Positions 1-32,023 of a stretch of DNA of 64,000 bases are shown piece after piece. The DNA is taken from positions 51,832,805-51,896,804 of the forward strand of contig NC_134847.1 in assembly GCF_965363235.1 (NCBI RefSeq), read 5' to 3'. The position numbers and the translations under genes are program-made. Source of the stretch: Mytilus galloprovincialis. Lineage: Eukaryota > Mollusca > Bivalvia > Mytilida > Mytilidae. A model generated the notes under the pieces. It worked only from the letters and a program-made list of their open reading frames with translations, made no database searches and was not told the DNA's origin. Numbering within the stretch: the first letter of the stretch is position 1; each line of letters starts with the position of its first letter.

Positions 1-442
1 GTTACAAGTTTAGTAACTAGATTGTGTCAAATTAGTAGAAAAGAGGACAGGGCTGTGGTTATACGATTTAAACATATCTGTCGTCATCTATGAAACAGAT
101 ATTCAATAACAAACTCGTAATGGCTTTTTTTAAACATTTTAAACGAATGACTTCCACTTTACTACTTTGTACAGTGCCAACTCAAACACAGCTACAAGAT
201 GTGAATGGGTTTTTAGTATTGTAAGGACTTATGCATTCTTTGTAGTTCTGTTAAATATGTAGGGACTATTCTATCTCTTATTATGCCACTTTATTATTGC
301 GTTGATAATATTTGACGGTAATAACAATGCCTGTATGACCAATAACAAGAGAAAATTAGACACAAAACTAGAATCATAAAATATTTTATTTTATTTGTGA
401 AAATGAGGTCATATATAAGGAAAAAACATTGACTTTTTTCAG

Positions 443-488
443 AATGAAGTAAAAGGAAAAGTTTGACCAAGGAATGGACATTGTCTAA
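443..488 (+). pseudogene. Isolated relic of a myticin last coding exon
   Basis: A TTTTTTCAG acceptor is followed by a 46-nt segment, exactly the length of the last coding exon of the myticin genes in this window. It reads ATG AAG TAA, then codons for KEKFDQGMDIV and a stop, recalling the acidic tail MKSMENLDNGMDML. The in-frame TAA at the second codon after ATG means it no longer encodes a tail. No exon 2 or signal exon was found in the 442 bases before it, though the gene could continue beyond the window edge. The sequence after it (500-1190) matches the inner part of the inverted repeats near 26 kb, where a sister relic lies. Confidence 0.6.
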
Positions 489-8769: not shown

Positions 8770-9403
8770 TGATGTTACAAACTTCATCCCGGCAAAATTT
8801 GCTACTGCCTTCATTGTAGAAGAGCTGAGTCTCCATTGGCACTTTCTGGAAGCGCAAGAAAAGAGAACGAGCAGAACAAAGATATTGACAACTCTCCAAT
8901 GTAAGTACAATACACGACTCCGTTACATAATATAAACGTTTACAAATTTACAAAAGAAAAACATTGTATTCTACATGCCGACATATACTGTATTTAAGGG
9001 ATATCAATTTTTTAAACAGATCATTTGAATTTTTTTTTGAATAAAGCATTTCATCTTTGTTTAATTCAATAGGTCGTTATCGTCTGCACGTATTATCTAC
9101 AGTCATAAACACATGAATTACTCCTGCAAGAGAAAGAAGGGATGTTTTGTTTTATATCGGTTAATGTGTTGGGAGGCAGATAAGATATTTTTTATTGTGT
9201 CTCTCAATTATTTACATTCAAAAACATTTTTTTACATAAATCGATCACTGGTCAATTGCACGAGAGTAGTCAGAAAAAAAACCCTGTTATATGAAACGCT
9301 TTAATTGAATTTGTGAAAAAAACCGCCACATATAAGAGACCATCTACTTTGTTTCAGGATGAATGAGATGGAACATTTGGACCAAGAAATGGATATGTTC
9401 TAG
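8770..9403 (+). pseudogene. Truncated myticin C pseudogene 1
   Basis: The 3' part of coding exon 2 (8770-8900) reads from GATGTTACAAACTTCATCCC through the last cysteines to DNSP and ends at a GTAAGT donor. Intron 2 and an intact 46-nt last exon (9358-9403, MNEMEHLDQEMDMF and stop) follow. The signal exon and the first half of exon 2 are missing. At 8770 the sequence switches abruptly to flank homologous to that upstream of the unit 3 myticin gene (34.44 kb). The fragment is the end of an inverted-repeat arm, not a decayed whole gene. It has no promoter of its own. Confidence 0.85.
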
Positions 9404-12294
9404 ACAGATATTTGATCAAGCGCTAACTTAGAAAATCAGCTATACTTCTTTCCTTGATGGTGAACTCTTTGTTCAAAGTCTGTTATAAACTTGAAAATTT
9501 ATTAAATCTTCTGTCATAAGCTTTCGACGTTTTCAGCTTGAAGTAACATTAAACATTTAATAATGCTTTGTAGTGCGTTATGATTTATATCCGTCAGTAG
9601 AAGTTTGTTTTACAATACACAATATTTGTTTTTCTCTCACTTGTTATGCAAAAAGATCTTTTTTTGCAATTCTGACTATTTTGTTTCTTTGTCGATGTCG
9701 TGATGTCCAAATGCAATAGCTTGAGAACCTTATTACTTTAGTTTTATATGTTGCGATTTTGTAAAACACCCTCAATATTCAATTTACCCACCGAGAATCA
9801 CAGTTATGTTGTTGTTGCTTATTCTTTAGTTTTTTAAGTTTCGTCATGTGTACTATTGTTTGCCTGTTTGTCTTTTTCATTTTTAGCCATGGCGTTGTCA
9901 GTTTATTTTCGATTTATGAGTTTGACTGTCCTTCTGGTATCTTTCGTCCCTCTTTTATTATAGTTGAATGTAATAATCAACATTCAGCAGAAGTTTTACC
10001 GGTGTTTTTAACCCAGTCAAAACGACCAAAGTGATCAATACCAATAAAATTTAGTATTCATTATGATATCCACTATTAATTTAAGTGAAAAAAATTATGT
10101 ATGGCAACAACTATACTATACAAATCATTGATCCAATGAAAGACACATTTGACATTTTACATTCGGTCAGGGTAAAAAAAATTATATGACCAATGGTCCA
10201 GAATATGGTAATGTCTTAGAGATATATAAGAGTAATTTACCAATGAACTCACCATAGATACCAGGATTGAAATTTCATATTTACGCCAGAAGCGCGTTTC
10301 ATCTACAAAAGACTCATCAATGACACTCGAATCAATCCGCAGTTGCGTGATGTCACTTTATATTAGTTATTAGCGTATGTTATAGGGGTAACATGACGGG
10401 TGTCCCATGTAGAGCATGATAAGCGTACCATGCCTGAACACTTGAGATCACCCCAAGTGTGGTGAAACTCATATTGCTCGGTCCTTAGTTTTCTGTTGCG
10501 GTTTTGTAAAACACCCTCAATATTCAGTCTTTCCACCCATATTCACAGTTCTGTGATCAATTGATTAAAAGTAAAAGTTTATCCATTATTCGTCTTCCAT
10601 CATAGGTCAAAACAAGCTGTGTTGGTATTTTTTATCTATGTAAATGATTCTATTTCCCTGCAGATTCAATTTCATTTTGATTCATTAATAAAGTTTAAGT
10701 ATTTCACATAACCTAAAACTATTAAATATGGTTTGCTTTCCAAACATTACTATTTAGCCCTTCAACCGTGTGCTCACATAATCCATAATTCCTTGGTTTC
10801 GTTGTTAAAATTTATTCTCGTCCTGACCATGCATGTAATATTTACCACTGAACATCAACAACTAATCAACGATTTATGAAAGATTTGGCACTACACCTGA
10901 AGTAAACAACGATCAATCAATCAAACATCATGATTTATAAAACACAACAAAATAACAGACCATTGAACTTAAGGGAATAGTTATGATTTTCTTTTCATTC
11001 TAAAAATTTATTTGAACCATGCATGCATTAACTCATTTGTTTTTTGTCATGCTATTTTTTTTTGTTTTAAAGAACATAATGCAAATACTTTTAAACGGAA
11101 TTTCTTTTCCTTCTCGCACATTGAAATGTTTTTTTCTTTAATAATGAATCAGAATATGTCAAATCTAAGGTATTAACAGGATTCATCTATTTTCGTGGGT
11201 GCCAATTTCCGTGGAACGAGGAAAAATTGCCTTTTCGTGGTTTTGGTATAGTATGCTTACAACACAATAGGAATAAGTAATTAGTTGAATATATAATTTT
11301 TTGGTTCAACTGTACACACCAGAAAAATTGAGATCCAACGAATAGTAAAAAATACATAGTAAAAAGTTACTTTTATATGTATTTTAAAAAAAGTACTATT
11401 ATAAACATAAAAAAGATGTGGTATATCTGTGAATTACATTGAGACAACTATCTAGTCATAATGACTTAGATGCATGGAACTAAAAGTGACCATACAGTCT
11501 TCAACAATGAACAAAATCAATACTGTATATATGTATAAATAAATGCCTAAAAAGTTTACAAAATAACACCAATAATATTAAAAGGCAAAATTAAATGTAA
11601 TTATATGTGATTTGTGCCTGTCCTGAGTACGGAACTTGTAGTTCGGTGGTTATTGTTTGTTGTTTATAAGTGTTTCTCGTTTTTCGTTTTTGTGTAGATT
11701 GAACTGTTGATCTTCCTGTTTAAATGGTTTTACACTAGTCATTTTGGTGCTCTTTACAGCTTGCTATTCAGTGTTTCATGTCTCAGTGTTGAAGGTCGTA
11801 CTTTTGGCCTATGATAGTTTACGTTTTACAAATTGTGACTTGGATAGAGAGTTGTCTCATTGGCATTCATATCACTTCTTCTTATATCTATATTAAATGG
11901 CAAAAAAATACTAAATATGAAACAATTCAAACTAGAAAACATGAAGAGCTTGAAATTATGACAAACTTATTAAATAAAAACTGATATGGCAAGCAGCAAC
12001 CAATGGCAACAACTGATTCCTGACATAGGACAGGCACATGTGCTTGAATTTTCTACAATGAAATTCTATAGTTCTTATTTATCTAAAATATTTATCAAGA
12101 CAATTATTTAAAAACACGATAAAATTTGTATCCTAATGACTAAAATATGACACCTGTACATCATAGGCCAAATGTTTCTTTGAACAATTTATTTGAAAGA
12201 ATTATCAGAATTCATATCTCACACATGTGTACATGTACACATTATGTCACTCATTTTGTTTCTTTGCATACATCCATATTGTTAGTAATATATA
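8770..12294. repeat. Inverted repeat 1, left arm
   Basis: About 3.5 kb that pairs with 14229-17767 on the opposite strand. Matching landmarks include exon 3 (9358-9403 with 17134-17179), TCCGTCAGTAGAAGTTTG near 9590 with its reverse near 16932, and the ATGTGTACATGTACAC block near 12228 with its reverse near 14280. Within the arm are dispersed repeats only, such as the CCATGGCGTTGTCAGTTT family at 9.86-9.97 kb and the GTTGTCTCATTGGCATTC family at 11.63-11.88 kb. No gene was seen apart from the exon fragments. Confidence 0.85.
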
Positions 12295-14228
12295 AAGGCA
12301 ACAGTAGTATACTGCTGTTCAAAACTCATAAATCCATGGACAAAAAACAAACTAAAACTGAGGTAAACGCATTAAATATAAGAGGAGAACAACGACACAA
12401 CATTAAAATGTAACACACACAGAAACGGACTAAGCATTAGACAAAATCCTATGAGAAAAACAAATATAACATCAAAACCAAATACGTGAATTGGGGATAG
12501 ATCAGTACCGTGACACGTCTTATAGTCATTTCCTGACTTGGTTCAGGCATTTTCTAATGTAGAAAATGGTTGATTATACCAAAAAAACCCATCACAAACC
12601 TATATTTATGCATATTCTTGCAGATAAAGGAAAAAAAAACAACAATCACTATCCACGATACAGGATATTTGCTATAATACGCTTTCCGATATTACAGAAA
12701 TTGAATTAAAACAAACATATGCGTCAAAAATCAATTAAACAACAACGATGAACAAGAAAAATAATGAAAAGGAGAAACAACAACAGTAACTGTGAATGCA
12801 GCATGTGATTCAATTCAGAGTGCACAACGCATGTGCATGGAGTAACCTTGACTAGAAACAAAGAGGAAGCAAGATTAAATGTGCCTGTCGCAAGCCAGAA
12901 GCCTATAGGTCAGCTGTTTGTAATTGTTTATGTCTGATTTGTTCGAAAATTCTTTTGTTATATATAAACCGTTGATTTTTCTAAATTGAATGTGCAATAT
13001 TTTTCTTGTCGGGGCTTTTTATAGACGAATATACGACATGGGTTGATTCTTAATCGTTGAAGACTATTCTGATACCTATAACTGATATTGGTATCTCGGG
13101 ATGATACGGCATGTGATACGGATTTTGCTATGTATTATTCTCTATGAATTTAAACATAATTCTGATAATCAGTAAAAGTTTTCTGAAGTTGCACTAAACC
13201 GTTGATTATTCTAAATTAATGTGTCATATATTTCTTGTCTGGGCTTTTTATAGACAAACATACGACATGGGTTATTTCTTCATCGTTGAAGACTGTTCTG
13301 ATACCTATAACTGATATTGGTATCTCGGGATGATACGGCTTGTGATACGGATTTTGCCATGTATATTCTCTATGAATTGAAACATAATTATGATAATCAG
13401 TTAAAGTTTTCTGAAGTTGCAATATATTGTCAATAAGTTTTCATTGGGAGATAATCTAATATTTTTGAATATGAACAAGTCTAGAAACAGATTTGTGTTG
13501 TTTGGTGGGTAAATTTTATAATGACTTATCTATCAACAGATGCCAGTAAAAACTAAAACTTTGTGGGCGAAAGCGACCCTGAACAATTAAATGCACATGA
13601 ACTCTGTACAGTAAATTCGCAAAAACGACAACTTCATAATGAGGAAAAAATGAATTAAAGTAAAATATATGTAAAGTATAAGTAACAGAAGATAAAAAAG
13701 TACTTTTATATGAATTCCAATGTTGTATGATATACAATGTATTTAAACATTGGAGAAGAGCAATTCCATTCTTTTGATGTAGGGGGTGAGTAGCATGCTT
13801 TAAGTTCACTGCATGGAATTATATCATTTGGGAAATATAATATTACAGTTATAAACATCAATGTTTATACTTTAAAATTCAAATATGTATAATGGACTTT
13901 ATTTGGTTTCTTCCTAGGGCCTTATATTGAGTTGCACGTCATCGCTATAATGTAAGTGTGGATTAAAATGTAAATACGTATTTTCTATACATAACTTCTG
14001 TTGTTCCTCTTACACATTTAGTTGATGTGTTTCCTAGGTTTTAGATTGTGACCCTTAATCGATTGATGACTATTGAACAAAGTTATAATACTGTTGCCTC
14101 TATTCATAGCAATATTACATTTATAGTTGTCATTTGATTCTGTGAAAATGAAGCATACCCACTTATATAATATCAATAATAAATAATAAAAGCTACAGTA
14201 TAATGTAGATGATCATATGGAAATATTG
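12295..14228. repeat. Asymmetric spacer of inverted repeat 1
   Basis: Bases 12295-12526 correspond to 23835-24083 (left arm of inverted repeat 2). Bases 12527-14228 correspond to about 26525-28236 (right arm of inverted repeat 2). The join therefore looks like loss of about 2.4 kb that included the centre. At 14229 about 255 bases present at 28237-28491 are also missing. The spacer contains the 230-base tandem pair at 12966-13422. Confidence 0.7.
12966..13422. repeat. 230-base tandem duplication
   Basis: Two adjacent copies (12966-13195 and 13196-13422) start AAACCGTTGATT and end TTTTCTGAAGTTGC. Each contains GGTATCTCGGGATGATACGG. The same pair occurs at 26971-27432 and, inverted, at 24899-25360. 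The duplication therefore predates the larger inverted duplication. Frames read from it are shadows. Confidence 0.8.
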
Positions 14229-17200
14229 TATTACTAACAATATGGCTGTATGCAAAGAAACAAAATGAGTGACATAAGTTGTACATGTACACATGTGTAA
14301 GATATGAATTCTTATAATTCTTTCAAATAAATTTTTCAAAGCAACACTTGACCTATGATGTACAGGCGTCATATTTTAGTCATTAGAATACAAATGTTAT
14401 CGTGTTTTTTTAATAATTGTCTTGATGAATATTTTAGATAAATAAGAAATATAGAATTTCATTGTAGAAAATTCAAGCACATGTGCCTGTCCTATGTCAG
14501 GAGTCTGGTATTCAGTTGTTGCCATTGGTTGCTGCCTGCCATATCAGTTTTTATTTAATTAGTTTGTCATAATTTCAAGTTCTTCATGTTTTCTAGTTTG
14601 AATTGTTTCATATTTAGTATTTTTTTGCCATTTCATACAGATATAAGAAGAAGTGATATGAATGCCAATGAGACAACTCTCTATCCAAGTCACACTTTGT
14701 AAAACGTACAACATCATAGGCCAAAACTACGACCGTCAACACTGAGACATGAAACACCGAATAGCAAGCTGTATAGAGCACCAAAATGACTAGACGTGTA
14801 AAACCATTTAAACAGGAAGATCAGCAGTTCAATCTACTCAAAAAACGAAAAACGAGAAACACTTATGAACCACAAACAATGACCACCGAACTACATGTTC
14901 CGTACTCAGGACAGACGCAAATCACATATAATTACATTTAATATTGCCTTTTATTATTATTGGTGTTATTTTGTAAACTTTTTAGGCATTTATATATACA
15001 TATATACAGTATTGAGTTTGTTCATTGTTGAAGACTGTATGGTCACTTTTAGTTCCATGCATCTAAGTCATTATGACTAGATAGTTGTCTCAATGTAATT
15101 GGACGATATACCACATCTTTTTTATGATTATAATAATACTTTGTTAAAATACATATAAAAGTAACTTTTTACTATGTATTTATTACTATTCGTTGGATCT
15201 CAATTTTTCTGGTGTGTACAGTTGAACCAAAAAATTATATGTTCAACTAATTACTTATTCCTATTGTGTTGTAAGCATACTATACCAAAACCACGAAAAA
15301 TCAATTTTTCCTCGTTTCACGGAAATTGGCACCCACGAAAATAGATGAATCCTGTTAATACCTTAGATTTGACATATTCTGGTTCATTATTACAGAAAAA
15401 AATATTTCAATTTGCGAGAAGGAAAAGAAATTCCGTTTAAAAGTATTTGCATTATGTTCTTTAAAACAAAAAAAAAATAGCATGACAAAAAACAAATGAG
15501 TTAATGCATGCATGGTTCAAATAAATTTTTAGAATGAAAAGAAAATCATAACTATTCCCTTAAGTTCAATGGTCTGTTATTTTGTTGTGTTTTATAAATC
15601 ATGATTGTTTGATTGATTGATCGTTGTTTACTTCAGGTGCAGTGCCAAATCTTTCATAAATCGTTGATTAGTTGTTGATGTTCAGTGGTAAATATTACAT
15701 GCATGGTCAGGACGAGAATAAATTTTAACAACGAAACCAAGGAATTATGGATTATGTGAGCACACGGTTGAAGGGCTAAATAGTAATGTTTGGAAAGCAA
15801 ACCATATTTAATAGTTTTAGGTTATGTGAAATACTTAAACTTTATTAATGGATCAAAATGAAATTGAATCTGCAGGGAAATAGAATCATTTACATAGATA
15901 AAAAATACCAACACAACTTGTTTTGACCTATGATGGAAGACGAATAATAGATAAACTTTTACTTTTAATCAATTGATCACAGAACTGTGAATATGGCTGA
16001 ATAGACTGAATATTGAGGGTGTTTTACAAAACCGCAACAGAAAACTAAGGACCGAGCAATATGAGTTTCACCAAACTTGGGGTGATCTCAAGTGTTCAGG
16101 CAGGGTACGCTTATCATGCTCTACATGGGACACCCGTCATGTTACCCCTATAACATACGCTAATAACCAATATAAAGTGACATCACGCAACTGCGGATTG
16201 ATTCGAGCGTCATTGATGAGTCTTGTAGATGAAACGCGCTTCTGGCGTAAATATTAAATTTCAATCCTGGCATCTATAGTGAATTCATTGGTAATTTACT
16301 CTTATATATCTCTAAGACATTACCATATTCTGGACCATTGGTCATATAATTTTTTTTTACCCTGACCGAATGTAAAATGTCAAATGTGTCTTTCATTGGA
16401 TCAATGATTTGTATAGTATAGTTGTTGCCATATACATTTTTTTTTCACTTAAATTAATAGTGGATATCATAATGAATACTAAATTTCATTGGTATTGATC
16501 ACTTTGGTCGTTTTGACTGGGTTTAAAACACCGGTAAAACTTCTGCTGAATATTGATTATTAAGACATTCAACTATAATAAAAGAGGGACGAAAGATACC
16601 AGAAGGACACTCAAACTCATAAATCGAAAACAAACTGACAACGCCATGGCTAAAAATGAAAAAGACAAACAGGCAAACAATAGTACACATGACGAAACCT
16701 ACAAAACTAAAGAATAAGCAACAACAACATAACTGTGATTCTCGGTGGGTAAACTGAATATTGAGGGTGTTTTACAAAATCGCAACATATAAAACTAAAG
16801 TAATAAGGTTCTCAAGTTATTGTATTAGGACATCACGACATCGACAAAGAAACAAAATAGTCAGAATTGCAAAAAAAGATCTTTTTGCATAACAAGTGAG
16901 GGAAAAACAAATATTGTGTATTGTAAAACAAACTTCTACTGACGGATATAAATCATAACGCACTACAAAGCATTATTAAATGTTTAAATTTTACTTCAAG
17001 CTGAAAACGTCGAAAGCGTATGACAGAAGATTTAATAAATGTTCAGGTTTATAACAAACTTTGCACAAATTGTTCACCATCAAGGAAAGAAGTATAGCTG
17101 ATTTTCTAAGTTAGCGCTTGATCAAATATCTGTCTAAGACATATCCATTTCTTGGTCCAAATGTTCCATCTCATTCATCCTGAAACAAAGTAGATGTTCT

Positions 17201-17767
17201 CTTATATGTGGCGTTTTTTTTCACAAATTCAATTAAAACGTTTTATATAACAGGGTTTTTTTCTGACTTCTCTCGTGCAATTGACCAGTGATCGATTTAT
17301 GTAAAAAAAAATGTTTTTGAATGTAAATAATTGAGAGACACACTAGAAGATATCTTATCTACCTCCCAACACATTAACCGATCTAAGAAAAAAACATCCC
17401 TTCTTTCTCTTGCAGGAGTAGTTCAGGTGTTTATGACTGTAAATAATACGTGCAGACGATAACGACCTATTGAATTAAACAAAGATGCTTTATTTAAAAA
17501 AAATCAAATGATCTGTTTAAAAAAATGATATCCCTTAGTCTAAATACAGTATATGTTGGCATGTAGAATACAATGTTTTTCATTTGTAAATTTGTAAACG
17601 TTTATATTATGTAACGAAGTCTTGTATTGTACTTACATTGGAGAGTTGTCCATCTCTTTGTTCTGCTCGTTCACATTCCTAGCGCTTCCAGAAAGTGCCA
17701 ATGGAGACTCAGCTCTTCTACAATGATAGCAGTAGCAAATTACGGGATGAAGTCTGGAACAGCGATA
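14229..17767. repeat. Inverted repeat 1, right arm
   Basis: Reverse counterpart of 8770-12294. It is also a direct homologue of 28492-32023 and of 3035-5470. It runs into exons 3 and 2 of the second myticin gene, so the pairing ends inside exon 2. Other content is dispersed repeats (for example 14640-14920, GAGACAACTCTCTATCCAAG family; 16565-16700, CGCCATGGCTAAAAATG family). No independent gene was seen. Confidence 0.85.
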
Positions 17768-18444
17768 AAATAAGCAACCTTTAGACCCACAGAACCAAGC
17801 ACAGATAGTTGATGCACAAGGTACTGATTGGACTTCCTGAACTTATAAATAAAAAACGGAGAAAAAATAACATAAAATAAAATTGATTAAATAATGCACA
17901 AATAACGATGCCTGTCTAAAAGAGAGACAAAATATACCACAGGGACAATCGATATCATAAGTTAAAAATCTACTGACAACGACATGGCAAAAGACAAACA
18001 ACTGTATACAAAGCATAGCATAGAAAACTGCCAACTGAACAACACGTATAAAGAAAAAAATATTTGTTTTTATATTTGAATGATTGAATTTTAATAACAA
18101 AACATATTTCAGTTTTAAACATTAACAATTTATCTTACATAAAACAGTATTTATTTATGAAGAAATATTACAATAAAGTAGTACAATTTTACATAATATA
18201 CAAATATGGGTTTCGCAATCAAATTTTGGAAAAGTCGGTCTGCCGTATTTTTATCTTAAAAAATATCGGATCTATACTTCTAAATAAATGCAACAGTAGT
18301 ATACCGCTGTTTAAAACTCATAAATCCATGGACAAAAAAAAACAAAATCGGGGTAAAATACGTACACACAGATATATTTCAATAAAGATATTTACCTCCA
18401 ACAATGACTGCCACTACAACAGCTAACAAGATCGTTGCCTTCAT
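17134..18444 (-). CDS. Divergent myticin C-like peptide precursor (copy 2)
   Basis: Predicted 99-residue precursor. Coding exons: 18396-18444 (49 nt, identical to copy 1), 17637-17841 and 17134-17179. The mature region starts QSVPCASTICAWFCGSKGC and keeps all eight cysteines. The loop before cysteine 6 is one residue shorter (HPVIC in place of HPGKIC) through an in-frame three-base loss. Fifteen residues of exon 2 differ from copy 1, while introns and flanks are nearly identical. The extension is AESPLALSGS and the tail is MNEMEHLDQEMDMS. All splice signals look sound (AAG acceptor for exon 2). Promoter and non-coding 5' exon match copy 1. Probably functional; its different loops may change target range. 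Best called a hypervariable myticin C paralogue. Confidence 0.9.
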
Positions 18445-18896
18445 GTTGAATTTTGAGGAACACTAAATTAGAAACCTCAAAAACAGAAAAATGATTTGTT
18501 TTATGTAATGTAGTCTTAACGACAAACGTCGTAGGTCAATATTGTAAAAGGTTTCGATCTCAAAACACAACATGAGTATTTTTTAAATAGAATGAAAGAA
18601 TTTTAGGTTGCAAAATCATATGAAGCAAATTGCATTGAAATAACACATTTTATAGTATGATACTTCTTACACAAAGAATGTGTGTATTTCACATACAAGT
18701 ATTTCTTCGTGAGTAATTATTTGCTTATCATTTTCTTTATATTTTCTGGGTTTTGAATAATTATATTTTCCTTCAATTCTCGTCAACTTATTGGAACAAT
18801 ATTAGAATGGAACGATTTAAAGAGTTGAACACAGTTTCGCCAATGCCAAAACAAATGAAGAATTTGAAGAGTGAAGTAATCAAAATACTGACATAC

Positions 18897-18999
18897 CCTT
18901 TGTACAATCTTGTAGAAGTTAAAGACATGTATATTAATATTATGTATTTATATATATATATATATATGTTCTTAACAGGAAACACGGAAATTGTGGTTG
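18897..18999 (-). promoter_or_regulatory. Promoter and non-coding exon of myticin C-like copy 2
   Basis: Same module as copy 1: RUNX-like ACCACA (18992-18997), TTTCCTG, AAGAACA, then a TATATA run (about 18948-18967), and an exon ending near 18897 before GTATGT. It lacks the extra ATATTAATTTTTCATTA stretch found between TATA and exon in copy 1. Confidence 0.7.
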
Positions 19000-19911
19000 C
19001 TCTCTGCATTACATTTAAAAGCATAGTATTTGGTCAATGTCAATAACATTGCCAAAATATATTTGCGTAATAGCCGACTTTCTTATTTTTCCTTTCTTGA
19101 AAGCTAATATAGATCATCTACATCATCTAATTAAACTATGGTGGTCTTCGATTTATGGCTTACTTTTGTAGAAACATCATGTTTAAGTTTTTCTTTAATT
19201 TAAACTAATTTAAGGCAACAGTAGTATATCGCTGTTCGAAATTCATAAATCGATTGTGAAAAAAAAAACAGGGTTAGAAACTAAAACTGAGGGGAACACA
19301 TCAAATATAAGAGGAGAACTACGACACAACAGAAACACAACATTAAAATGTAACACACAGAAATGAACTATAATATAACAATGGCAATTTTCCTGACTTG
19401 GTACAGGACATTTTAAGAAAAAATGGTGGATTAAACGACAACATATCAAAATTTAGTAAAAAATTTCTGACGTTTAACCATTTAAAATGATTTTTGTTTG
19501 CTCCGAATTAGCCATTTACCTGCCCCGGTAGTTTATTTTCTGGAATCTCTTTTTATCTCTAGTTGACTTAGATAGATGATATGCCCGCACTTACATTTGG
19601 GTATTAAGTGATAAGAAATCATCAATAAATCTGAAATCTTGAAATTTTTAAACAAGGTTTTTGTGCTTGTCTTGCAGAATGGTCTCCGTGAATTCAGATT
19701 TGCAGGGTACAAAACAATTTGAGCAGAAGAAGCAAACAAATTTTATGGTATACTGATATAAAATAAATCCAACGAACCCCAAAAATATGTTGACGATCAA
19801 ACAGTCCCGCATTTTATAATATCATTATTGATGAATTTGCTGTTGAGATCAGTGTGGTTTTCAACAAAATAGTATCAGTCATGGCTTGTTTTTACCTTTT
19901 TTGATTTTGTA

Positions 19912-20307: not shown

Positions 20308-20938
20308 GATGTTACAAACTTCATCCCGGCAAAATTTGCTACTGCCTTCATTGTAGAAGAGCTGAGTCTCCATTGGCACTTTCTGGAAGCGCAAGAAAAG
20401 AGAACGAGCAGAACAAAGATATTGACAACTCTCCAATGTAAGTACAATACACGACTCCGTTACATAATATAAACGTTTACAAATTTACAAAAGAAAAACA
20501 TTGTATTCTACATGCCGACATATACTGTATTTAAGGGATATCAATTTTTTTAACAGATCATTTGAATTTTTTTTTTAAATAAAGCATTTCATCTTTGTTT
20601 AATTCAATAGGTCGTTATCGTCTGCGCGTATTATCTACAGTCATAAACACCTTAACTGCTCCTGCAAAAGAAAGAAGGAATGTTTTTTTCTGATATTGGT
20701 TAATGTGTTGGGAGGTAGATAAGATATCTTCTAGTGTGTCTCTCAACTATTTACATTCAAAAACATTTTTACATAAATCGATCACTGGTCAATTGCACGA
20801 GAGAAGTCAGAAAAAAACCCTGTTATATAAAACGTTTTAATTGAATTTGTGAAAAAAACGCCACATATAAGAGAACATCTACTTTGTTTCAGGATGAATG
20901 AGATGGAACATTTGGACCAAGAAATGGATATGTTCTAG
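20308..20938 (+). pseudogene. Truncated myticin C pseudogene 2
   Basis: Near-identical to the pseudogene at 8770-9403: 3' part of coding exon 2 (20308-20437), GTAAGT donor, intron 2, and the intact last exon (20893-20938). It starts at the same GATGTTAC breakpoint. It marks the outer end of the left arm of inverted repeat 2. It lacks the signal exon, the first cysteines and a promoter, so it cannot make a secreted peptide. Confidence 0.85.
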
Positions 20939-23900
20939 ACAGATATTTGATCAAGCGCTAACTTAGAAAATCAGCTATACTTCTTTCCTTGATGGTGAAC
21001 AATTTGTGCAAAGTCTGTTATAAACTTGACAATTTACTAAATCTTCTGTCATACACTTTCGGCGTTTTCAGCTTGAATTAACATTAAACATTTAATAATG
21101 CTGTGTAGTGCGTTATGATTTATATTCGTCAGTTGAAGTTTGTTTTACAATACACAATATTTGTTTTTCCCTCACTTGTTATGCAAAAAGATCTTTTTTT
21201 GCAATTCTGACTATTTTGTTTCTTTGTCGATGTCGTGATGTCCAAATGAAATAGCTTGAGAACCTTATTACTTTAGTTTTCTATGTTGCGATTTTGTAAA
21301 ACACCCTCAATATTCAGTTTACCCACCGAGAATCACAGTTATGTTGTTGTTGCTTATTCTTTAGTTTTGTAAGTTTCGTCATGTGTACTAATGTTTGCCT
21401 GTTTGTCTTTTTCATTTTTAGCTATAGCGTTGTCAGTTTATTTTCGATTTATGAGTTTGACTGTCCTTCTGGTATCTTTCGTCCCTCTTTTATTATAGTT
21501 GAATGTAATAATCAACATTCAGCAGAAGTTTTACCGGTGTTTTTAACCCAGACAAAACGACCAAAGTGATCAATACCAATAAAATTTAGTATTCATTATG
21601 ATATCCACTATTAATTTAAGTGAAAAAAATTGTGTTTGGCAACAACTATACTATACAAATCATTGATCCAATGAAAGACACATTTGACATTTTACATTCG
21701 GTCAGGGTAAAAAAAATTATATGACCAATGGTCCAGAATATGGTAATGTCTTAGAGATATATAAGAGTAATTTACCAATGAACTCACCATAGATACCAGG
21801 ATTGAAATTTCATATTTACGCCAGAAGCGCGTTTCATCTACAAAAGACTCATCAATGACACTCGAATCAATCCGCAGTTGCGTGATGTCACTTTATATTA
21901 GTTATTAGCGTATGTTATAGGGGTAACATGACGGGTGTCCCATGTAGAGCATGATAAGCGTACCATGCCTGAACACTTGAGATCACCCCAAGTGTGGTGA
22001 AACTCATATTGCTCGGTCCTTAGTTTTCTGTGTTGCGGTTTTGTAAAACACCCTCAATATTCAGTCTATCCACCCATATTCACAGTTCTGTGATCAATTG
22101 ATTAAAAGTAAAAGTTTATCCATTATTCGTCTTCAATCATAGGTCAAAACAAGCTGTGTTGGTATTTTTTATCTATGTAAATGATTCTATTTCCCTGCCG
22201 ATTCAATTTCATTTTGATTCATTAATAAAGTTTAAGTATTTCACATAACCTAAAACTATTAAATGTTGTTTGCTTTCCAAACATTACTATTTAGCCCTTC
22301 AACCGTGTGCTCACATAATCCATAATTCCTTGGTTTCGTTGTTAAAATTTATTCTCGTCCTGACCATGCATGTAATATTTGCCACTGAACATCAATCAAC
22401 TAATCAACGATTTATGAAAGATTTGGCACTACACCTGAAGTAAACAACGATCAATCAATCAAACATCATGATTTATAAAACACAACAAAATAACAGACCA
22501 TTGAACTTAAGGGAATAGTTATAATTTTCTTTTCATTCTAAATAAATTTATTTGAACCATGCATGCATTAACTCATTTGTTTTTTGTCATGCTATTTTTT
22601 TGTTTTAAAGAACATAATGAAAATACTTTTAAACGGAATTTCTTTTCCTTCTCGCAAATTGAAATATGTTTTTCTTTAATAATGAATCAGAATAGGTCAA
22701 ATCTAAGGTATTAACAGGATTCATCTATTTTCGTGGGTGCCAATTTCCGTGGAACGAGGAAAAATTGCCTTTTCGTGGTTTTGGTATAGTATGCTTACAA
22801 CACAATAGGAATAAGTCATTAGTTGAATATATAATTTTTTGGTTCAACTGTACATACCAGAAAAATTGAGATCCAACGAATAGTAAAAAATACATAGTAA
22901 AAAGTTACTTTTATATGTATTTTTAAAAAGTACTATTATAAACATAAAAAAGATGTGGTATATCTGTCAATTACATTGAGACAACTATCTAGTCATAATG
23001 ACTTAGATGCATGGAACTAAAAGTGACCATACAGTCTTCAACAATGAACAAAATCAATACTGTATATATGTATAAATAAATGCCTAAAAAGTTTACAAAA
23101 TAACACCAATAATAATAAAAGGCAATATTAAATGTAATTATATGTGATTTGTGCCTGTCCTGAGTACGGAACCTGTAGTTCGGTGGTTATTGTTTGTGGT
23201 TCATAAGTGTTTCTCGTTTTTCGTTTTTGTGTAGATTGAACTGTTGATCTTCCTGTTTAAATGGTTTTACACTAGTCATTTTGGTGCTCTTTACAGCTTG
23301 CTATTCAGTGTTTCATGTCTCAGTGTTGAAGGTCGTACTTTTGTCCTATGATAGTTTACGTTTTACAAATTGTGACTTGGATAGAGAGTTGTCTCATTGG
23401 CATTCATATCACTTCTTCTTATATCTGTATTAAATGGCAAAAAAATACTAAATATAAAACAATTCAAACTAGAAAACATGAAGAGCTTGAAATTATGACA
23501 AACTTATTAAATAAAAACTGATATGGTAAGCAGCAACCAATGGCAACAACTGAATACCAGACTCCTGACATAGGACAGGCACATGGGCTTGAATTTTCTA
23601 CAATGAAATTCTATAGTTCTTATTTATCTAAAATATTTATCAAGACAATTATTAAAAACACGATAAAATTTGTATCCTAATGACTAAAATATGACACCTG
23701 TACATCATAGGCCAAGTGTTGCTTTGAACAATTCATTTGAAAGAATTATAAGAATTCATATCTCACACATGTGTACATGTACACATTATGTCACTCATTT
23801 TGTTTCTTTGTATACATCCATATTGTTAGTAATATATAAAGGCAACAGTAGTATACCGCTGTTCAAAACTCATAAATCCATTGACAAAAAACAAAATCGG

Positions 23901-25787
23901 GGTAACAAACTAAAACTGAGGTAAACGCATTAAATATAAGAGGAGAACAACGACACAACATTAAAATGTAACACACACAGAAACGGACTAAGCATTAGAC
24001 AAAATCCTATGAGAATAACAAATATAACATCAAAACCAATTACGTGAATTTGGGATAGATCAGTACCGTGACACGTCTTATAGTAATGTGAATTCACATA
24101 CAATATTTCCATATGATCATCTACATTATACTGTAGCTTTTGTTATTTGTTATTGTTATTATATAAGTGGGTATGCTTCATTTGCACAGAATCAAATGAA
24201 AAATATAAATGTAATATTGCTATGAATAGAGGCATCAGTATTATAACTTTGTTCAATAGCCATCAATCGATTAAGGGTCACAATCTAAAACCTAGGAAAC
24301 ACATCAACTACATGTGTAAGAGGAGCAACAGAAGTTATGTATAGAAAATATGTATATACATTTTAGTCCACACTTACATGATAGCGATGACGTGCAACTC
24401 AATATAAGGCCCCAGGAAGAAACCAAGTAAAGTCCATTATACATATTTGAATTTTAAAGTCTAAACATTGATGTTTATAACTGTAATATATTAATTCCCA
24501 AATGATATAATTCCGTGCAGTATACTTAAAGCATGCTACTCACCCCTACATCAAAAGAATAGAATTGCTCTTCTCCAATGTTCAAATACATTGTATACCA
24601 TACAACATTGGAATTCATATAAAAATAATTTTACATCTTCTGTTACTCATATATTTTACTTTAATTCATTTTTTCTTCATTATGAAGTTGTCGTTTTTGC
24701 AAATTTACTGTACAGTGTTCATGTGCATTTAATTGTTCAGGGTCGCTTTCGTCCACAAAGTTTTAGTTTTTACTGGCATCTGTTGATAGATAAGTCACTA
24801 TAAAAATGTACCCATCAAACAACACAAATTTGTTTCTAGACTTGTTCATATTCAAAAATATTAGATTATCTCCCCATGAAAACTTATTGACAATATATTG
24901 CAACTTCAGAAAACTTTAACTGATTATCATAATTATGTTTTAATTCATAGAGAATAATTATACATGGCGAAATCCGTATCACAAGCCGTATCATCCCGAG
25001 ATACCAATATCAGTTATAGGTATCAGAACAGTCTTCAACGATGAAGAAATAACCCATGTCGTATATTTGTCTATAAAAAGCCCAGACAAGAAATATATTA
25101 CACATTAAATTTAGAAAAATCAACGGTTTATTGCAACTTCAGAAAACTTTAACTGATTATCAGAATTATGTTTAAATTCATAGAGAATAATACATAGCAA
25201 AATCCGTATCACATGCCGTATCATCCCGAGATACCAATATCAGTTATAGGTATCAGAATAGTCTTCAACGATTAAGAATCAACCCATGTCGTATATTCGT
25301 CTATAAAAAGCCCCGACAAGAAAAATATTACACATTCAATTTAGAAAAATCAACGGTTTATATATAGCAAAACAATTTTCGAACACATCAGACATAAACA
25401 ATTACAAACAGCTGACCTATAGGCTTCTGACTTGCGACAGGCACATTTAATCTTGCTTCCTCTTTGTTTCTGGTCAAGGTTACTCCATGCACATGCGTTG
25501 TGCACTCTGATTATTGAATCACATGCTGCATTCACAGTAACTGTTGTTGTTTCTCCTTTTCATTATTTTTCTTGTTCATCGTTGTTGTTTAATTGATTTT
25601 TGACGCATATGTTCGTTTTAATTCAATTTCTGTAATATCGGAAAGCGTATTATATCAAATATCCTGTATCGTGGATAGTGATTGTTTTTTTTCCCCTTTA
25701 TCTGCAAGAATATGCATAAATATAGGTTTGGAATGGGGTTTTCTGGTATAATCAACCATTTTCTACATTAGAACCAAGTCAGGAAAT
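20308..25787. repeat. Inverted repeat 2, left arm
   Basis: About 5.5 kb pairing with 26525-32023. Frames on opposite strands at 25350-25535 and 26795-26980 translate identically, so inner-arm identity is very high. It contains the pseudogene, the same dispersed repeats as inverted repeat 1 and the 230-base tandem pair at 24899-25360. No other gene was seen. Confidence 0.85.
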
Positions 25788-26074
25788 TACAGTTGGTATC
25801 CATTCGTTTGATTTGTTTGAGCTTTTGATTTAACCATTTGACAAGGGACTTTCCTCTTTGAATTTTCATCAGAGATCATTTTTTTGTGATTTTACTTTTC
25901 AGACAAGTAAGAATTTTCAGCTTGAAAGGTCTAAAGTTTGTGAAAGAACATGAGTTTAATTTAAATGTTAATACTATAAGTTTGTAAAGTCATAATTAAG
26001 TTTGTCAACCACGAGGAAAAGCGACTATTGATTAGATTATGTATATGCTTTTAATCTGCATGTCAACAGTTTGC

Positions 26075-26120
26075 TTAGAAAATGTCCATACCTTGGTCAA
26101 ACTTTTCCATTGCATTCATT
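26075..26120 (-). pseudogene. Isolated myticin last coding exon in the palindrome spacer
   Basis: On the minus strand a TTTTTTTTCAG acceptor precedes a 46-nt exon reading A, then MNAMEKFDQGMDIF and TAA. This is the size, phase and sequence pattern of the myticin acidic tail, and it is fully open. No mature-peptide or signal exon was found on its 5' side (26.12-26.52 kb holds AT-rich sequence and a CACCAT array). It is a sister of the relic at 443-488 and shares the FDQGMDI variant, pointing to a lost myticin lineage distinct from A, B and C. Confidence 0.7.
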
Positions 26121-26327
26121 CTGAAAAAAAAGTCAATGTTTTTCTAATATATGACCTCCTATTCAATTTTTTTTTTCGTATTCTTATCTATAATATATAT
26201 TTAGTCTACCGGGTATAGTAATTTGCTACTCTGGAAAAATATTAATTAAGATTATTATTATTGTTTATGTTTACAATCCGAAAAATTAAAATAAAAAGAA
26301 CTTCGATTTCCACCAATGAAATGTTGT

Positions 26328-26476
26328 ACACCATTCATTCACACCATTCCCGATTGCATGTTACACGATCACACCATTCCTCATTCACCATTACACCATT
26401 CCCCTTACACCATACACCATAGCACCATACACCTTACACCATTGCACCATACACCTTACACCATTACACCATACAC
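26328..26476. repeat. CACCAT low-complexity array
   Basis: Irregular tandem copies of ACACCAT(T/A) variants such as CACCATACACCTTACACCAT. It lies in the spacer between the arms of inverted repeat 2, next to the inner boundary. The open frame through it is low complexity and not a gene. Confidence 0.85.
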
Positions 26477-26524
26477 GTTTTTTTTTTGGGAAGTTTACAC
26501 CATCCAAGGGCTGTACCAACTGTC

Positions 26525-29500
26525 ATTTCCTGACTTGGTTCAGGAATTTTCTAATGTAGAAAATGGTTGATTATACCAGAAAACCCCATCACAAACCTAT
26601 ATTTATGCATATTCTTGCAGATAAAAGAAAAAAAAAAACAATCACTATCCACGATACAGGATACAGGATATTTGCTATAATACGCTTTCCGATATTACAG
26701 AAATTGAATTAAAACGAACATATGCGTCAAAAATCAATTAAACAACAACGATGAACATGAAAAATAATGAAAAGGAGAAACAACAACAGTTACTGTGAAT
26801 GCAGCATGTGATTCAATAATCAGAGTGCACAACGCATGTGCATGGAGTAACCTTGACCAGAAACAAAGAGGAAGCAAGATTAAATGTGCCTGTCGCAAGT
26901 CAGAAGCCTATAGGTCAGCTGTTTGTAATTGTTTATGTCTAATGTGTTCGAAAATTGTTTTGCTATATATAAACCGTTGATTTTTCTAAATTGAATGTGT
27001 AATATTTTTCTTGTCGGGGCTTTTTATAGACGAATATACGACATGGGTTGATTCTTAATCGTTGAAGACTATTCTGATACCTATAACTGATATTGGTATC
27101 TCGGGATGATACGGCATGTGATACGGATTTTGCTATGTATTATTCTCTATGAATTTAAACATAATTCTGATAATCAGTTAAAGTTTTCTGAAGTTGCAAT
27201 AAACCGTTGATTTTTCTAAATTTAATGTGTAATATATTTCTTGTCTGGGCTTTTTATAGACAAATATACGACATGGGTTATTTCTTCATCGTTGAAGACT
27301 GTTCTGATACCTATAACTGATATTGGTATCTCGGGATGATACGGCTTGTGATACGGATTTCGCCATGTATAATTATTCTCTATGAAATTAAACATAATTA
27401 TGATAATCAGTTAAAGTTTTCTGAAGTTGCAATATATTGTCAATAAGTTTTCATGGGGAGATAATCTAATATTTTTGAATATGAACAAGTCTAGAAACAA
27501 ATTTGTGTTGTTTGATGGGTACATTTTTATAGTGACTTATCTATCAACAGATGCCAGTAAAAACTAAAACTTTGTGGACGAAAGCGACCCTGAACAATTA
27601 AATGCACATGAACACTGTACAGTAAATTTGCAAAAACTTCATAATGAAGAAAAAATGAATTAAAGTAAAATATATGAGTAACAGAAGATGTAAAATTATT
27701 TTTATATGAATTCCAATGTTGTATGGTATACAATGTATTTGAACATTGGAGAAGAGCAATTCTATTCTTTTGATGTAGGGGTGAGTAGCATGCTTTAAGT
27801 ATACTGCATGGAATTATATCATTTGGGAAATAATATATTACAGTTATAAACATCAATGTTTATACTTTAAAATTCAAATATGTATAATGGACTTTACTTG
27901 GTTTCTTCCTGGGGCCTTATATTGAGTTGCATGTCATCGCTATCATGTAAGTGTGGACTAAAATGTATATACATATTTTCTATACATAACTTCTGTTGTT
28001 CCTCTTACACATGTAGTTGATGTGTTTCCTAGGTTTTAGATTGTGACCCTTAATCGATTGATGGCTATTGAACAAATTTATAATACTGATGCCTCTATTC
28101 ATAGCAATATTACATTTATATTTTTCATTTGATTCTGTGCAAATGAAGCATACCCACTTATATAATAACAATAACAAATAACAAAAGCTACAGTATAATG
28201 TAGATGATCATATGGAAATATTGTATGTGAATTCACATTACTATAAGACGTGTCACGGTACTGATCTATCCCAAATTCACGTATTTGGTTTTGATGTTAT
28301 ATTTGTTATTCTCATAGGATTTTGTCTAATGCTTAGTCCGTTTCTGTGTGTGTTACATTTTAATGTTGTGTCGTTGTTCTCCTCTTATATTTAATGCGTT
28401 TACCTCAGTTTTAGTTTGTTACCCCGATTTCGTTTTTTGTCCATGGATTTATGAGTTTTGAACAGCGGTATACTACTGTTGCCTTTATATATTACTAACA
28501 ATATGGATGTATACAAAGAAACAAAATGAGTGACATAATGTGTACATGTACACATGTGTGAGATATGAATTCTTATAATTCCTTCAAATGAATTGTTCAA
28601 AGCAACACTTGGCCTATGATGTACAGGTGTCATATTTTAGTCATTAGGATACAAATTTTATCGTGTTTTTAATAATTGTCTTGATAAATATTTTAGATAA
28701 ATAAGAACTATAGAATTTCATTGTAGAAAATTCAAGCACATGTGCCTGTCCTATGTCAGGAGTCTGGTATTCAGTTGTTGCCATTGGTTGCTGCTTACCA
28801 TATCAGTTTTTATTTAATAAGTTTGTCATAATTTCAAGCTCTTCATGTTTTCTAGTTTGAATTGTTTTATATTTAGTATTTTTTTGCCATTTAATACAGA
28901 TATAAGAAGAAGTGATATGAATGCCAATGAGACAACTCTCTATCCAAGTCACAATTTGTAAAACGTAAACTATCATAGGACAAAAGTACGACCTTCAACA
29001 CTGAGACATGAAACACTGAATAGCAAACTGTAAAGAGCACCAAAATGACTAGTGTAAAACCATTTAAACAGGAAGATCAACAGTTCAATCTACACAAAAA
29101 CGAAAATCGAGAAACTCTTATGAACCACAAACAATAACCACCGAACTACAGGTTCCGTACTCAGGACAGGCACAAATCACATATAATTACATTTAATATT
29201 GCCTTTTATTATTATTGGTGTTATTTTGTAAACTTTTTAGGCATTTATTTATACATATATACAGTATTGATTTTGTTCATTGTTGAAGACTGTATGGTCA
29301 CTTTTAGTTCCATGCATCTAAGTCATTATGACTAGATAGTTGTCTCAATGTAATTGACAGATATACCACATCTTTTTTATGTTTATAATAGTACTTTTTA
29401 AAAATGCATATAAAAGTAACTTTTTACTATGTATTTTTTACTATTCGTTGGATCTCAATTTTTCTGGTGTGTACAGTTGAACCAAAAAATTATATATTCA

Positions 29501-32023
29501 ACTAATTACTTATTCCTATTGTGTTGTAGGCATACTATACCAAAACCACGAAAAGGCAATTTTTCCTCGTTCCACGGAAATTGGCACCCACGAAAATAGA
29601 TGAATCCTGTTAATACCTTAGATTTGACCTATTCTGATTCATTATTAAAGAAAAAAATATTTCAATTTGCGAGAAGGAAAAGAAATTCCGTTTAAAAGTA
29701 TTTGCATTATGTTCTTTAAAACAAAACAATAGCATGACAAAAAACAAATGAGTTAATGCATGCATGGTTCAAATAAATTTTTAGAATGAAAAGAAAATCA
29801 TAACTATTCCCTTAAGTTCAATGGTCTGTTATTTTGTTGTGTTTTATAAATCATGATGTTTGATTGATTGATCGTTGTTTACTTCAGGTGTAGTGCCAAA
29901 TCTTTCATAAATCGTTGATTAGTTGATTGATGTTCAGTGGCAAATATTAGATGCATGGTCAGGACGAGAATAAATTTTAACAACGAAACCAAGGAATTAT
30001 GGATTATGTGAGCACACGGTTGAAGGGCTAAATAGTAATGTTTGGAAAGCAAACCATATTTAATAGTTTTAGGTTATGTGAAATACTTAAACTTTATTAA
30101 TGAATCAACATGAAATTGAATCTGCAGGGAAATAGAATCATTTACATAGATAAAAAATACCAACACAGCTTGTTTTGACCTATGATTGAAGACGAATAAT
30201 GGATAAACTTTTACTTTTAATCAATTGATCACAGAACTGTGAATATGGGTGGATAGACTGAATATTGAGGGTGTTTTACAAAACCGCAACACAGAAAACT
30301 AAGGACCGAGCAATATGAGTTTCACCACACTTGGGGTGATCTCAAGTGTTCAGGCATGGTACGCTTATCATGCTCTACATGGGACACCCGTCATGTTACC
30401 CCTATAACATACGCTTATAACTAATATAAAGTGACATCACGCAACTGCGGATTGATTCGAGTGTCATTGATGAGTCTTTTGTAGATGAAACGCGCTTCTG
30501 GCGTAAATATGAAATTTGAATCCTGGTATCTATTGTGAGTTCATTGGTAATTTACTCTTATATATCTCTAATACATAACCATATTCTGGACCATTGGTCA
30601 TATACTTTTTTTTTACCCTGACCGAATGTAAAATGTCAAATGTGTCTTTCATTGGATCAATGATTTGTATAGTATAGTTGTTGCCATACAAAATTTGTTC
30701 ACTTAAATTAATAGTGGATATCATAATGAATACTTAATTTTATTGGTATTGATCACTTTGGTCGTTTTGACTGGGTTGAAAACACCGGTAAAACTTCTGC
30801 TGAATATTAGTTATTAAGACATTCAACTATAATAAAAGAGGGACGAAAGATACCAGAGGGACAGTCAAACTCATAAATCGAAAATAAGCTGACAACGCCA
30901 TAGCTAAAAATGAAAAAGACAAACAGACAAACAATAGTACACATGACACAACATATAAAACTAAAGAATAAGCAACAACAAAATAACTGTGATTCTCGGT
31001 GGGTAAACTGAATATTGAGGGTGTTTTACAAAATCGCAATATCAAAAACTAAAGTAATAAGCTTCTCAAGCTATTTCATTTGGACATCACGACATCGACA
31101 AAGAAACAAAATAGTCAGAATTGCAAAAAAAAATCTTTTTACATAACAAGTGAGGGAAAAACTAATTTTGTGTATTGTAAAACAAACTTCTACTGACGAA
31201 TATAAATAATAAAGCACTACAAAGCATTATTAAATGTTTAAATTTTACTTCAAGCTGAAAACATCGAAAGCGTATGACAGAAGATTTAATAAATTTTCAA
31301 GTTTATAACAGACTTTGCACAAAGTGTTCACAATCAAGGAAAGAAGTATAGCTGATTTTCTAAGTTAGCGCTTGATCAAATATCTGTCTAAAACATTTCC
31401 ATTTCTTGGTCCAAATTTTCCACCTCATTCATCCTGAAACAAAGTAGATGTTTTCTTATATGTGGTGTTATTTTCACAAATTCAATTAAAACGTTTCATA
31501 TAACAGGGTTTTTTTTCTGACTACTCTCGTGCAATTGACCAGTGATCGATTTATGTAAAAAAATGTTTTTGAATGTAAATAATTGAGAGACACACTAGAA
31601 GATATCTTATCTACCTCCCAACACATTAACCGATCTAAGAAAAAAACATCCCTTCTTTCTCTTGCAGGAGTAGTTCAGGTGTTTATTTTTTTTTCAATGA
31701 CTGCATAATACGATTCAGACGATAACGACATATTGAATTAAGATGAAATATTTTATTTAAAAAAAAAATCAAATTATCTGTTTCAAAAATTGGTAAACAC
31801 CTTAATTACAATATATGTTGGCATGAAGGAAACTGTTTTTTCAAATTTTTAAATGTTTATATTGTGTAACGAAATCTAGTATTGAGTACTTACACTGGAG
31901 AGTTGTCCATCTCTTTGTTCTGCTCGTTCACATTCCTAGCGCTTCCAGAAAGTGCCAATGGAGACTCAGCTCTGCGACAATGAAGGCAGTAGCAAATTTT
32001 GCCGGGATGAAGTTTGTAACATC
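26525..32023. repeat. Inverted repeat 2, right arm
   Basis: Reverse counterpart of 20308-25787. The spacer between the arms is about 740 bases (25788-26524). The arm ends inside exon 2 of the third myticin gene. Content is dispersed repeats plus the 230-base tandem pair at 26971-27432. The 28237-28491 segment (ACATTTTAATGTTGTGTCGT, then the AGTAGTATACCGCTG repeat in reverse) is present on both arms here but only once in inverted repeat 1. Confidence 0.85.

What the first reader, a model, noticed from the sequence alone, without database searches (positions are those of the whole stretch)
17637..17841. Mature-peptide exon of myticin C copy 2 has changed far faster than its surroundings
Coding exon 1 is identical (49 of 49 bases) between copies 1 (6094-6142) and 2 (18396-18444), and introns and flanks are nearly identical. 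Exon 2 differs by 15 amino-acid replacements plus one in-frame three-base loss, against one codon with only a synonymous change (AGA/AGG), by my hand alignment. All eight cysteines are kept. Changes cluster in the inter-cysteine loops (for example Y-Y to T-I, A to K, G to R). Myticin C is known to be highly variable; here the pattern is seen between adjacent gene copies. It suggests strong diversifying selection, or gene conversion of that exon from another allele.
Basis: partly seen in the sequence, partly recalled or inferred. Interest (0 to 1): 0.85.

Follow-up and report, generated by a model that had tools for sequence, protein, structure and literature searches.

The report
Fast-changing mussel antimicrobial peptide exon
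One of three neighbouring myticin C genes in a mussel genome carries a defence-peptide segment that has changed far more than the DNA next to it, a clear new case of a variability already known in this gene family.

Summary
Coordinates are exact: copy 2 exon 2 is 17637-17841 (-), in an intact myticin C gene (PF10690). Against copy 1 the mature peptide has 14 replacements plus one lost codon, with all eight cysteines kept; its DNA differs at 22 of 118 compared sites against 44 of 770 adjacent noncoding sites (p=1e-5). The change lies on copy 2's lineage (18 private sites against 2 for copy 1).

Correction one: introns and flanks are not uniformly near-identical. A breakpoint near 18167 in intron 1 separates a 5' part at 0.7% from a 3' part at 6.8% (5.7% in its noncoding pieces), so exon 1 identity is the wrong yardstick. 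Correction two: dN/dS is 2.0-2.7, not significantly above 1 (p=0.16-0.22).

Best reading: exchange in intron 1 joined a young promoter/signal module to an older peptide module whose loops, in copy 2, diversified under selection or came from a divergent allele. Selection, recombination and tandem copies are published (PMC7356231, PMC3164099). What is added is architecture: large inverted repeats ending inside this exon.

The parts
17637..17841 (-). Myticin C copy 2, exon 2 (end of signal, mature peptide, start of C-terminal region); intact frame and splice sites
   Evidence: CDS rebuilt with AG/GT borders; Pfam PF10690, E=1e-34
17714..17830 (-). Mature-peptide part of copy 2 (39 residues against 40 in copy 1)
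   Evidence: 22 differences from copy 1 in 17713-17830; 14 replacements and one lost codon
17757..17816 (-). 60-bp fastest segment, from the end of the Cys1 codon to just past Cys5
   Evidence: 17/60 differences; segmentation and scan permutation, 0 of 20,000
18396..18444 (-). Copy 2 coding exon 1 (signal peptide), identical to copy 1
   Evidence: 0/49 differences
17134..17179 (-). Copy 2 exon 3 (end of C-terminal region)
18167..19532 (-). Young 5' module of copy 2 (promoter, exon 1, first part of intron 1), 0.7% from copy 1
   Evidence: 10/1365 differences; breakpoint near 18167 in the two-segment model
16848..18166 (-). Older 3' module of copy 2, 6.8% from copy 1 with exon 2 included
   Evidence: 89/1305 differences
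18970..18999 (-). Published myticin promoter motif 2, exact match
   Evidence: motif copied from PMC7356231
4832..6142 (-). Myticin C copy 1 (coding exons 6094-6142, 5327-5534, 4832-4877)
31388..32636 (-). Myticin C copy 3 (coding exons 32588-32636, 31894-32101, 31388-31433), used as outgroup
8773..8900 (+). Inverted exon-2 fragment ps1, homology starting at the Cys5 codon; first half of the mature exon missing
20310..20437 (+). Inverted exon-2 fragment ps2, exon-2 part identical to ps1
8773..17761 (.). Large inverted repeat 1: arms 8773-12290 and 14229-17761; the right arm ends inside copy 2 exon 2
   Evidence: 129/3504 differences between arms
20308..32023 (.). Large inverted repeat 2: arms 20308-25773 and 26549-32023, 775-bp spacer; the right arm ends inside copy 3 exon 2
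   Evidence: 144/5444 differences, 12.9% in the bin at the exon end and 0.3% near the centre
37207..39495 (+). Myticin B-like gene
45124..47081 (+). Myticin A-like gene

Best explanation
Copy 2 is an intact, probably expressed myticin C gene built as a mosaic. Step 1 (pattern shown, cause inferred): copies 1 and 2 share a young 5' module (promoter, signal exon, first part of intron 1; 0.7% divergence) joined near 18167 to 3' modules that are older (5.7% in noncoding pieces); unequal crossing-over or ectopic gene conversion with its edge in intron 1 is the likely cause. Step 2 (excess shown, cause inferred): inside the older module the segment from Cys1 to just past Cys5 has changed strongly on the copy 2 lineage while the cysteines stayed fixed; nonsynonymous divergence in the mature part is about 3.8 times that of adjacent noncoding DNA. 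The most likely cause is diversifying selection on the inter-cysteine loops of a host-defence peptide, acting on copy 2 or on the allele its segment came from. Tyr-Tyr to Thr-Ile can be read as two compensating one-base indels instead of five substitutions (inferred). Outcome (inferred): copies 1 and 2 make disulfide-stabilised peptides with different exposed loops from nearly the same promoter and secretion signal.
For: Mature 22/118 against 44/770 adjacent noncoding, p=1e-5; nonsynonymous 20/92 against the same, p=2e-6. Relative rate with copy 3 as outgroup: 2 sites private to copy 1 and 18 to copy 2, p=4e-4; noncoding 3' pieces 32 and 22; Fisher between the two p=1.6e-4. No change in 24 cysteine bases, p=0.004. 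Breakpoint near 18167. Intact frame, splice sites and PF10690 match; promoter motif exact. Patches where copy 1 and ps1 agree against the other three copies, and a 90-column bin with 0 differences between copies 2 and 3, point to local exchange. Published site tests on the conventional myticins (93 of 120 sequences) find positively selected sites and purifying selection on six cysteines (PMC7356231); M8-M8a tests are significant for the mature and C-terminal parts (PMC3164099).
Against: dN/dS tests are not significant: Fisher p=0.215, pairwise LRT p=0.185; branch model 2.7 on copy 2 against 1, p=0.155, and against background 0.65, p=0.052. A noncoding pocket at the end of intron 1 (17973-17856) is as divergent as the mature exon between copies 1 and 3 (30/120, permutation p=5e-5) and between copies 2 and 3 (28/113 at 17969-17856), so mosaicism alone can make a pocket. 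BIC slightly prefers two segments (791.7) to the six-segment model holding the hot one (794.2). If Tyr-Tyr/Thr-Ile is two indels the excess weakens to p=8e-4. Copy 2 lost a turn glycine found in the other five genes aligned, which would also fit lost constraint. Vera 2011 found most neutrality tests not significant and no recombinants in genomic DNA (PMC3164099).
Confidence: 0.6

Rival explanations
1. Import only: the fast segment was copied whole from a much older, unsampled myticin allele or paralogue by gene conversion, and no selection on this lineage is needed to explain the pocket.
For: Mosaicism and exchange patches in the locus; silent sites in the mature part nominally above noncoding (3/25 against 44/770, p=0.18); an equally divergent noncoding pocket in comparisons with copy 3; high intron diversity in the population (theta 0.076-0.078, PMC3164099).
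Against: No close donor in the 1.38-Gb assembly; no word of 14 to 16 bases over the private changes recurs in the window. One search did not list even copies 1 and 3, so it excludes only close donors. The change spares every cysteine.
Confidence: 0.25
2. Relaxed constraint: copy 2 is a redundant copy decaying towards a pseudogene.
For: Loss of the glycine in the HPGK turn, present in the other five genes aligned; several published myticin variants lack evidence of expression or are pseudogenes (PMC7356231).
Against: Relaxed constraint cannot exceed the local noncoding rate, yet mature nonsynonymous divergence is about 3.8 times it. Frame, splice sites, promoter motif and all cysteines are intact.
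Confidence: 0.1
3. Assembly artefact: the copy 2 exon is a chimera of two haplotypes.
For: Repeats in this locus are similar over kilobases, and a published mussel genome is highly heterozygous (3.27%, PMC11183127); no reads were available here.
Against: Copies carry private differences on both sides of the exon, and the segment was found once in the assembly, in a 91-Mb contig.
Confidence: 0.05

Closest known systems
Myticin C of Mytilus galloprovincialis (Rey-Campos 2020, PMC7356231; Vera 2011, PMC3164099)
   Same: Precursor layout, eight-cysteine array, hypervariable mature peptide, tandem copies, recombination, positive selection at mature-peptide sites, promoter motifs.
   Different: Copy 2 has 7 instead of 8 residues between Cys5 and Cys6 and differs from copy 1 at 0.186 per site in the mature part, against a mean mature diversity of 0.054-0.057 in Vera 2011.
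Pseudomyticins (PMC7356231)
   Same: Diverged members of the same gene family.
   Different: Pseudomyticins lack Cys1 and Cys5; copy 2 keeps all eight cysteines.

Membership tests
Myticin (PF10690) | Match to the myticin pre-proprotein profile over the whole precursor | tested here: met
   Copy 2: 119.1 bits against cut-off 28.5, residues 1-98 of 99
[quoted passage not shown]
   Eight cysteines; spacing as in copies 1, 3, B and A except one residue fewer between Cys5 and Cys6
Myticin (PF10690) | Separate coding exons for signal, mature and C-terminal parts | tested here: met
   Three coding exons; the published upstream noncoding exon was not looked for
Myticin (PF10690) | Glycine of the tight turn between the beta strands (purifying selection reported; not a defining feature in the strict sense) | tested here: not met
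   GK of HPGK is V in copy 2; glycine present in the other five aligned. That this is the paper's glycine is my inference
[quoted passage not shown]
   Alignments; feature as stated in PMC7356231
Gene under diversifying selection | dN/dS significantly above 1 in the mature region | tested here: inconclusive
   1.98-2.7, p=0.155-0.215
Myticin (PF10690) | Expression in hemocytes | not testable with these tools
   No reads or transcripts available
CS-alpha-beta fold | Predicted fold | not tested
   Structure machine busy in all six attempts; solved-structure search gave two matches, neither a myticin

The most novel reading that the evidence does not exclude
The myticin C locus is a diversity-generating array. 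The 3' halves of copies 2 and 3 each lie in one arm of a multi-kilobase inverted repeat whose other arm ends in a truncated, inverted exon-2 fragment. The arms begin inside the mature-peptide exon, so arm-to-arm conversion can rewrite or homogenise the second half of the peptide and the C-terminal region, while the first half (the 60-bp fast segment, which overlaps the arm boundary by only five bases) escapes it and diversifies freely behind a promoter kept young by exchange in intron 1.
Probability: 0.12. Interest if true: 0.6.

Novelty: new member of a known kind. Interest (0 to 1): 0.32.

Why it matters
It shows on one contiguous haplotype how neighbouring copies of one defence peptide can sit behind nearly the same promoter and signal exon, and it separates two causes that are easily confused: recombination in intron 1 and fast change in the mature segment. 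Exon 1 identity is a misleading baseline for selection in this family. The inverted arms ending inside the exon give a specific, testable route for exchange in genes already reported to recombine.

Tried and rejected
dN/dS as the deciding test: NG86, pairwise ML and a two-ratio branch model all exceed 1 on copy 2, none significantly. Donor search for the fast segment in the whole assembly: only copy 2 itself; one search did not list copies 1 or 3 either, so it is insensitive to diverged relatives. Shared words in the window (17715-17825, words absent from copies 1 and 3): none of 14 to 16 bases; 2 of 13 bases (0.45 expected from shuffles); 8 hits of 12 bases (1.6 expected), of which three are one word near codon 59 shared with ps1, ps2 and the gene at 50.9 kb, and the others lie outside myticin exons. 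Short-range template switching, a lead from an abstract in a search listing (PMC8604942): no inverted 9-mer in 5200-5700 of copy 1. Clustering of hits within codons: 7 codons with two or more changes, p=0.07, not used. Solved-structure search: two matches up to E=10, neither a myticin. Passages of PMC3736426 on the myticin C structure gave nothing used. Literature on the copy 2 peptide: the first search was swamped by an unrelated word and was repeated without it. Literature on palindromes, inverted repeats or unequal crossing in the myticin locus: among the listed papers (12 of 1,461 and 8 of 3,072) only PMC3164099 holds the word myticin, and it has no occurrence of 'palindrome' or 'inverted duplication'; this is weak evidence of absence. 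Species: not named by the tools; myticins imply Mytilus (recalled and from papers). The published M. galloprovincialis assembly of 1.414 Gb in 94 scaffolds (PMC11183127, passages) differs in size from this one (1.385 Gb, 331 contigs); a paper search for a M. edulis assembly found none.

Full report
What is there. The window is G000:C10:51832805-51896804 of a 1.385-Gb assembly in 331 contigs. It holds a compact myticin locus: three myticin C genes on the minus strand (exon 2 at 5327-5534, 17637-17841 and 31894-32101), a B-like gene (exon 2 at 38612-38807) and an A-like gene (46108-46303) on the plus strand, a diverged C-like gene at 50.9 kb (minus), and two truncated inverted exon-2 fragments at 8773-8900 and 20310-20437. 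Three whole-genome protein searches (9, 9 and 15 first-look candidates scored) each returned the same eight places, all in this window. They are not exhaustive: a weaker myticin-like remnant just before the window appeared only in a local search. Five rebuilt precursors (C1, C2, C3, B, A) have clean frames and AG/GT borders, and all five match PF10690 far above its cut-off.

The observation. Coding exon 1 is identical between copies 1 and 2 (0/49). In the mature part there are 14 replacements and one lost codon; in the rest of exon 2 two replacements and one purely synonymous codon. All eight cysteines are kept, with one residue fewer between Cys5 and Cys6.

The yardstick needs correcting. Copy 1-copy 2 divergence is not uniform. 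Segmentation puts the main breakpoint near 18167, inside intron 1: 10/1365 differences upstream, 89/1305 downstream. Per region: upstream 9/1087, first part of intron 1 1/228, second part 15/326, mature 22/118 (17713-17830, one base beyond the last mature codon), rest of exon 2 3/76, intron 2 29/444 with 7 gaps, exon 3 4/46, 3' flank 16/285. The noncoding pieces of the 3' module thus sum to 60/1055. The fair comparison for exon 2 is this module. Against the second part of intron 1 plus intron 2 (44/770) the mature segment is still clearly in excess: p=1e-5 for all sites and 2e-6 for nonsynonymous sites, while silent sites are not (3/25, p=0.18). A scan within the 3' module finds 17 differences in the 60 sites 17816-17757, not reached in 20,000 permutations; widths of 30 and 120 give p=0.004 and 0.0006. 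By BIC the two-segment model (791.7) remains slightly better than the six-segment one with this hot segment (794.2).

Which lineage. With copy 3 as outgroup, the mature part has 2 sites private to copy 1 and 18 private to copy 2 (p=4e-4); in the noncoding 3' pieces the counts are 32 and 22 (Fisher between the two p=1.6e-4). Copies 1 and 3 differ less in the mature part (12/121) than in intron 2 (50/436). The acceleration therefore belongs to copy 2 and is not a general feature of the exon among these three genes.

Selection or import. dN/dS for the mature part is 1.98 (Sd 3.0 of 25.2, Nd 20.0 of 91.8; Fisher p=0.215) and 2.6 by pairwise ML (p=0.185); the C-terminal part gives 0.5 and the signal part has no change. 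A branch model on six genes gives 2.7 on copy 2 against 0.65 elsewhere (p=0.052; against 1, p=0.155). With about 40 codons none of these reaches significance. What argues for selection is the rate above the noncoding baseline together with the spared cysteines (no change in 24 bases, p=0.004). What argues for caution: a noncoding pocket of similar divergence lies at the end of intron 1 in comparisons with copy 3 (copy 1-copy 3 30/120 at 17973-17856, permutation p=5e-5; copy 2-copy 3 28/113 at 17969-17856); and Tyr-Tyr to Thr-Ile (TACTAC to ACTATC) fits two compensating one-base indels, which when set aside leaves p=8e-4. No close donor of the fast segment was found, so an import would have to come from another haplotype, a lost copy or a relative too diverged for these searches.

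Copy 2 as a working gene. The published myticin promoter motif 2 is matched exactly upstream of copies 1, 2 and 3, and motif 4 with one mismatch each; frame and splice sites are intact. One odd point is the loss of the glycine in the HPGK turn, present in the other five genes aligned. PMC7356231 reports purifying selection on a glycine in a tight turn; that it is this one is my inference. Expression cannot be tested here, and structure prediction was never available.

Architecture around the exon. Two large inverted repeats end inside exon 2: arms 8773-12290/14229-17761 (129/3504 differences) and 20308-25773/26549-32023 (144/5444) with a 775-bp spacer. In the second, arm divergence falls from 12.9% in the bin at the exon end to 0.3% near the centre, as expected if exchange between arms is commonest near the spacer (inference). 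The blocks carrying ps1 and ps2 differ at 0.7-2.7% in nine of eleven 400-column bins but at 3.8-4.3% in the two bins over the myticin fragment. In a five-way alignment of the 3' parts, 34 sites split the copies two against three; at 10 of them copy 1 and ps1 stand together against copies 2, 3 and ps2, nine of these in two clusters (17426-17343 and 17071-17018). Seven group ps1 with ps2, five copy 2 with copy 3, five copy 1 with copy 3, two copy 1 with copy 2, two copy 2 with ps2, and three are other pairs. ps1 and ps2 differ by up to 13 in a 90-column bin while being identical in the exon part. This is mosaic evidence for exchange between genes and inverted fragments; direction is not shown. 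The fast 60-bp segment overlaps the arm boundary by five bases (17757 against 17761), which is suggestive only.

What is known. PMC7356231 (read: parts 1-4 of 7 of the text) describes 120 myticin sequences from 16 mussel genomes, presence/absence variation, positively selected sites in the mature peptide and purifying selection on six cysteines. PMC3164099 (parts 1-4 of 7) describes tandem myticin C genes, recombinant cDNA sequences (none in genomic DNA), intron diversity of 0.076-0.078, mostly non-significant neutrality tests, and significant M8-M8a tests for mature and C-terminal parts. PMC3210125 and PMC7653742 were seen as passages. The finding is therefore a new example of a known kind. 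Its additional value is one contiguous haplotype that shows the intron 1 breakpoint, the copy 2 acceleration and the inverted arms together. Two literature searches did not show a description of the inverted arms, but only the top-ranked papers were listed.

Noticed in passing
L026 7785-8239 (about 1.2 to 0.76 kb before the window) and window 432-487 (+): A further myticin-like gene or remnant: a signal-type exon, an exon-2-like stretch with five cysteines ending in a stop, and an exon-3-like piece just inside the window; possibly related to pseudomyticins.
   Followed up: partly
26076-26130 (-): An isolated myticin exon-3-like piece in the 775-bp spacer at the centre of the second inverted repeat, with no exon 2 match found beside it.
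   Followed up: partly
50738-50917 (-) and 50341-50379 (-): Diverged C-like myticin with eight cysteines; the frame runs into a stop right at the exon 2 donor and the usual AG before the exon-3-like piece is absent, so its C-terminal part is probably shortened.
   Followed up: partly
8773-9688 and 20310-21223 (+): The two inverted fragments are identical in their exon-2 part but unusually different in intron 2 and the 3' part, where ps1 resembles copy 1.
   Followed up: partly
7245-7996: About 750 bases upstream of copy 1 have no counterpart upstream of copy 2, while parts of them are related to sequence upstream of copy 3, so copy 2 may have lost them.
   Followed up: no
12964-13424, 24896-25361 and 26969-27434: A two-unit tandem repeat of about 230 bases occurs in both arms of inverted repeat 2 and in the middle of inverted repeat 1; the tandem-repeat finder listed only the one at 24896-25361.
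   Followed up: no
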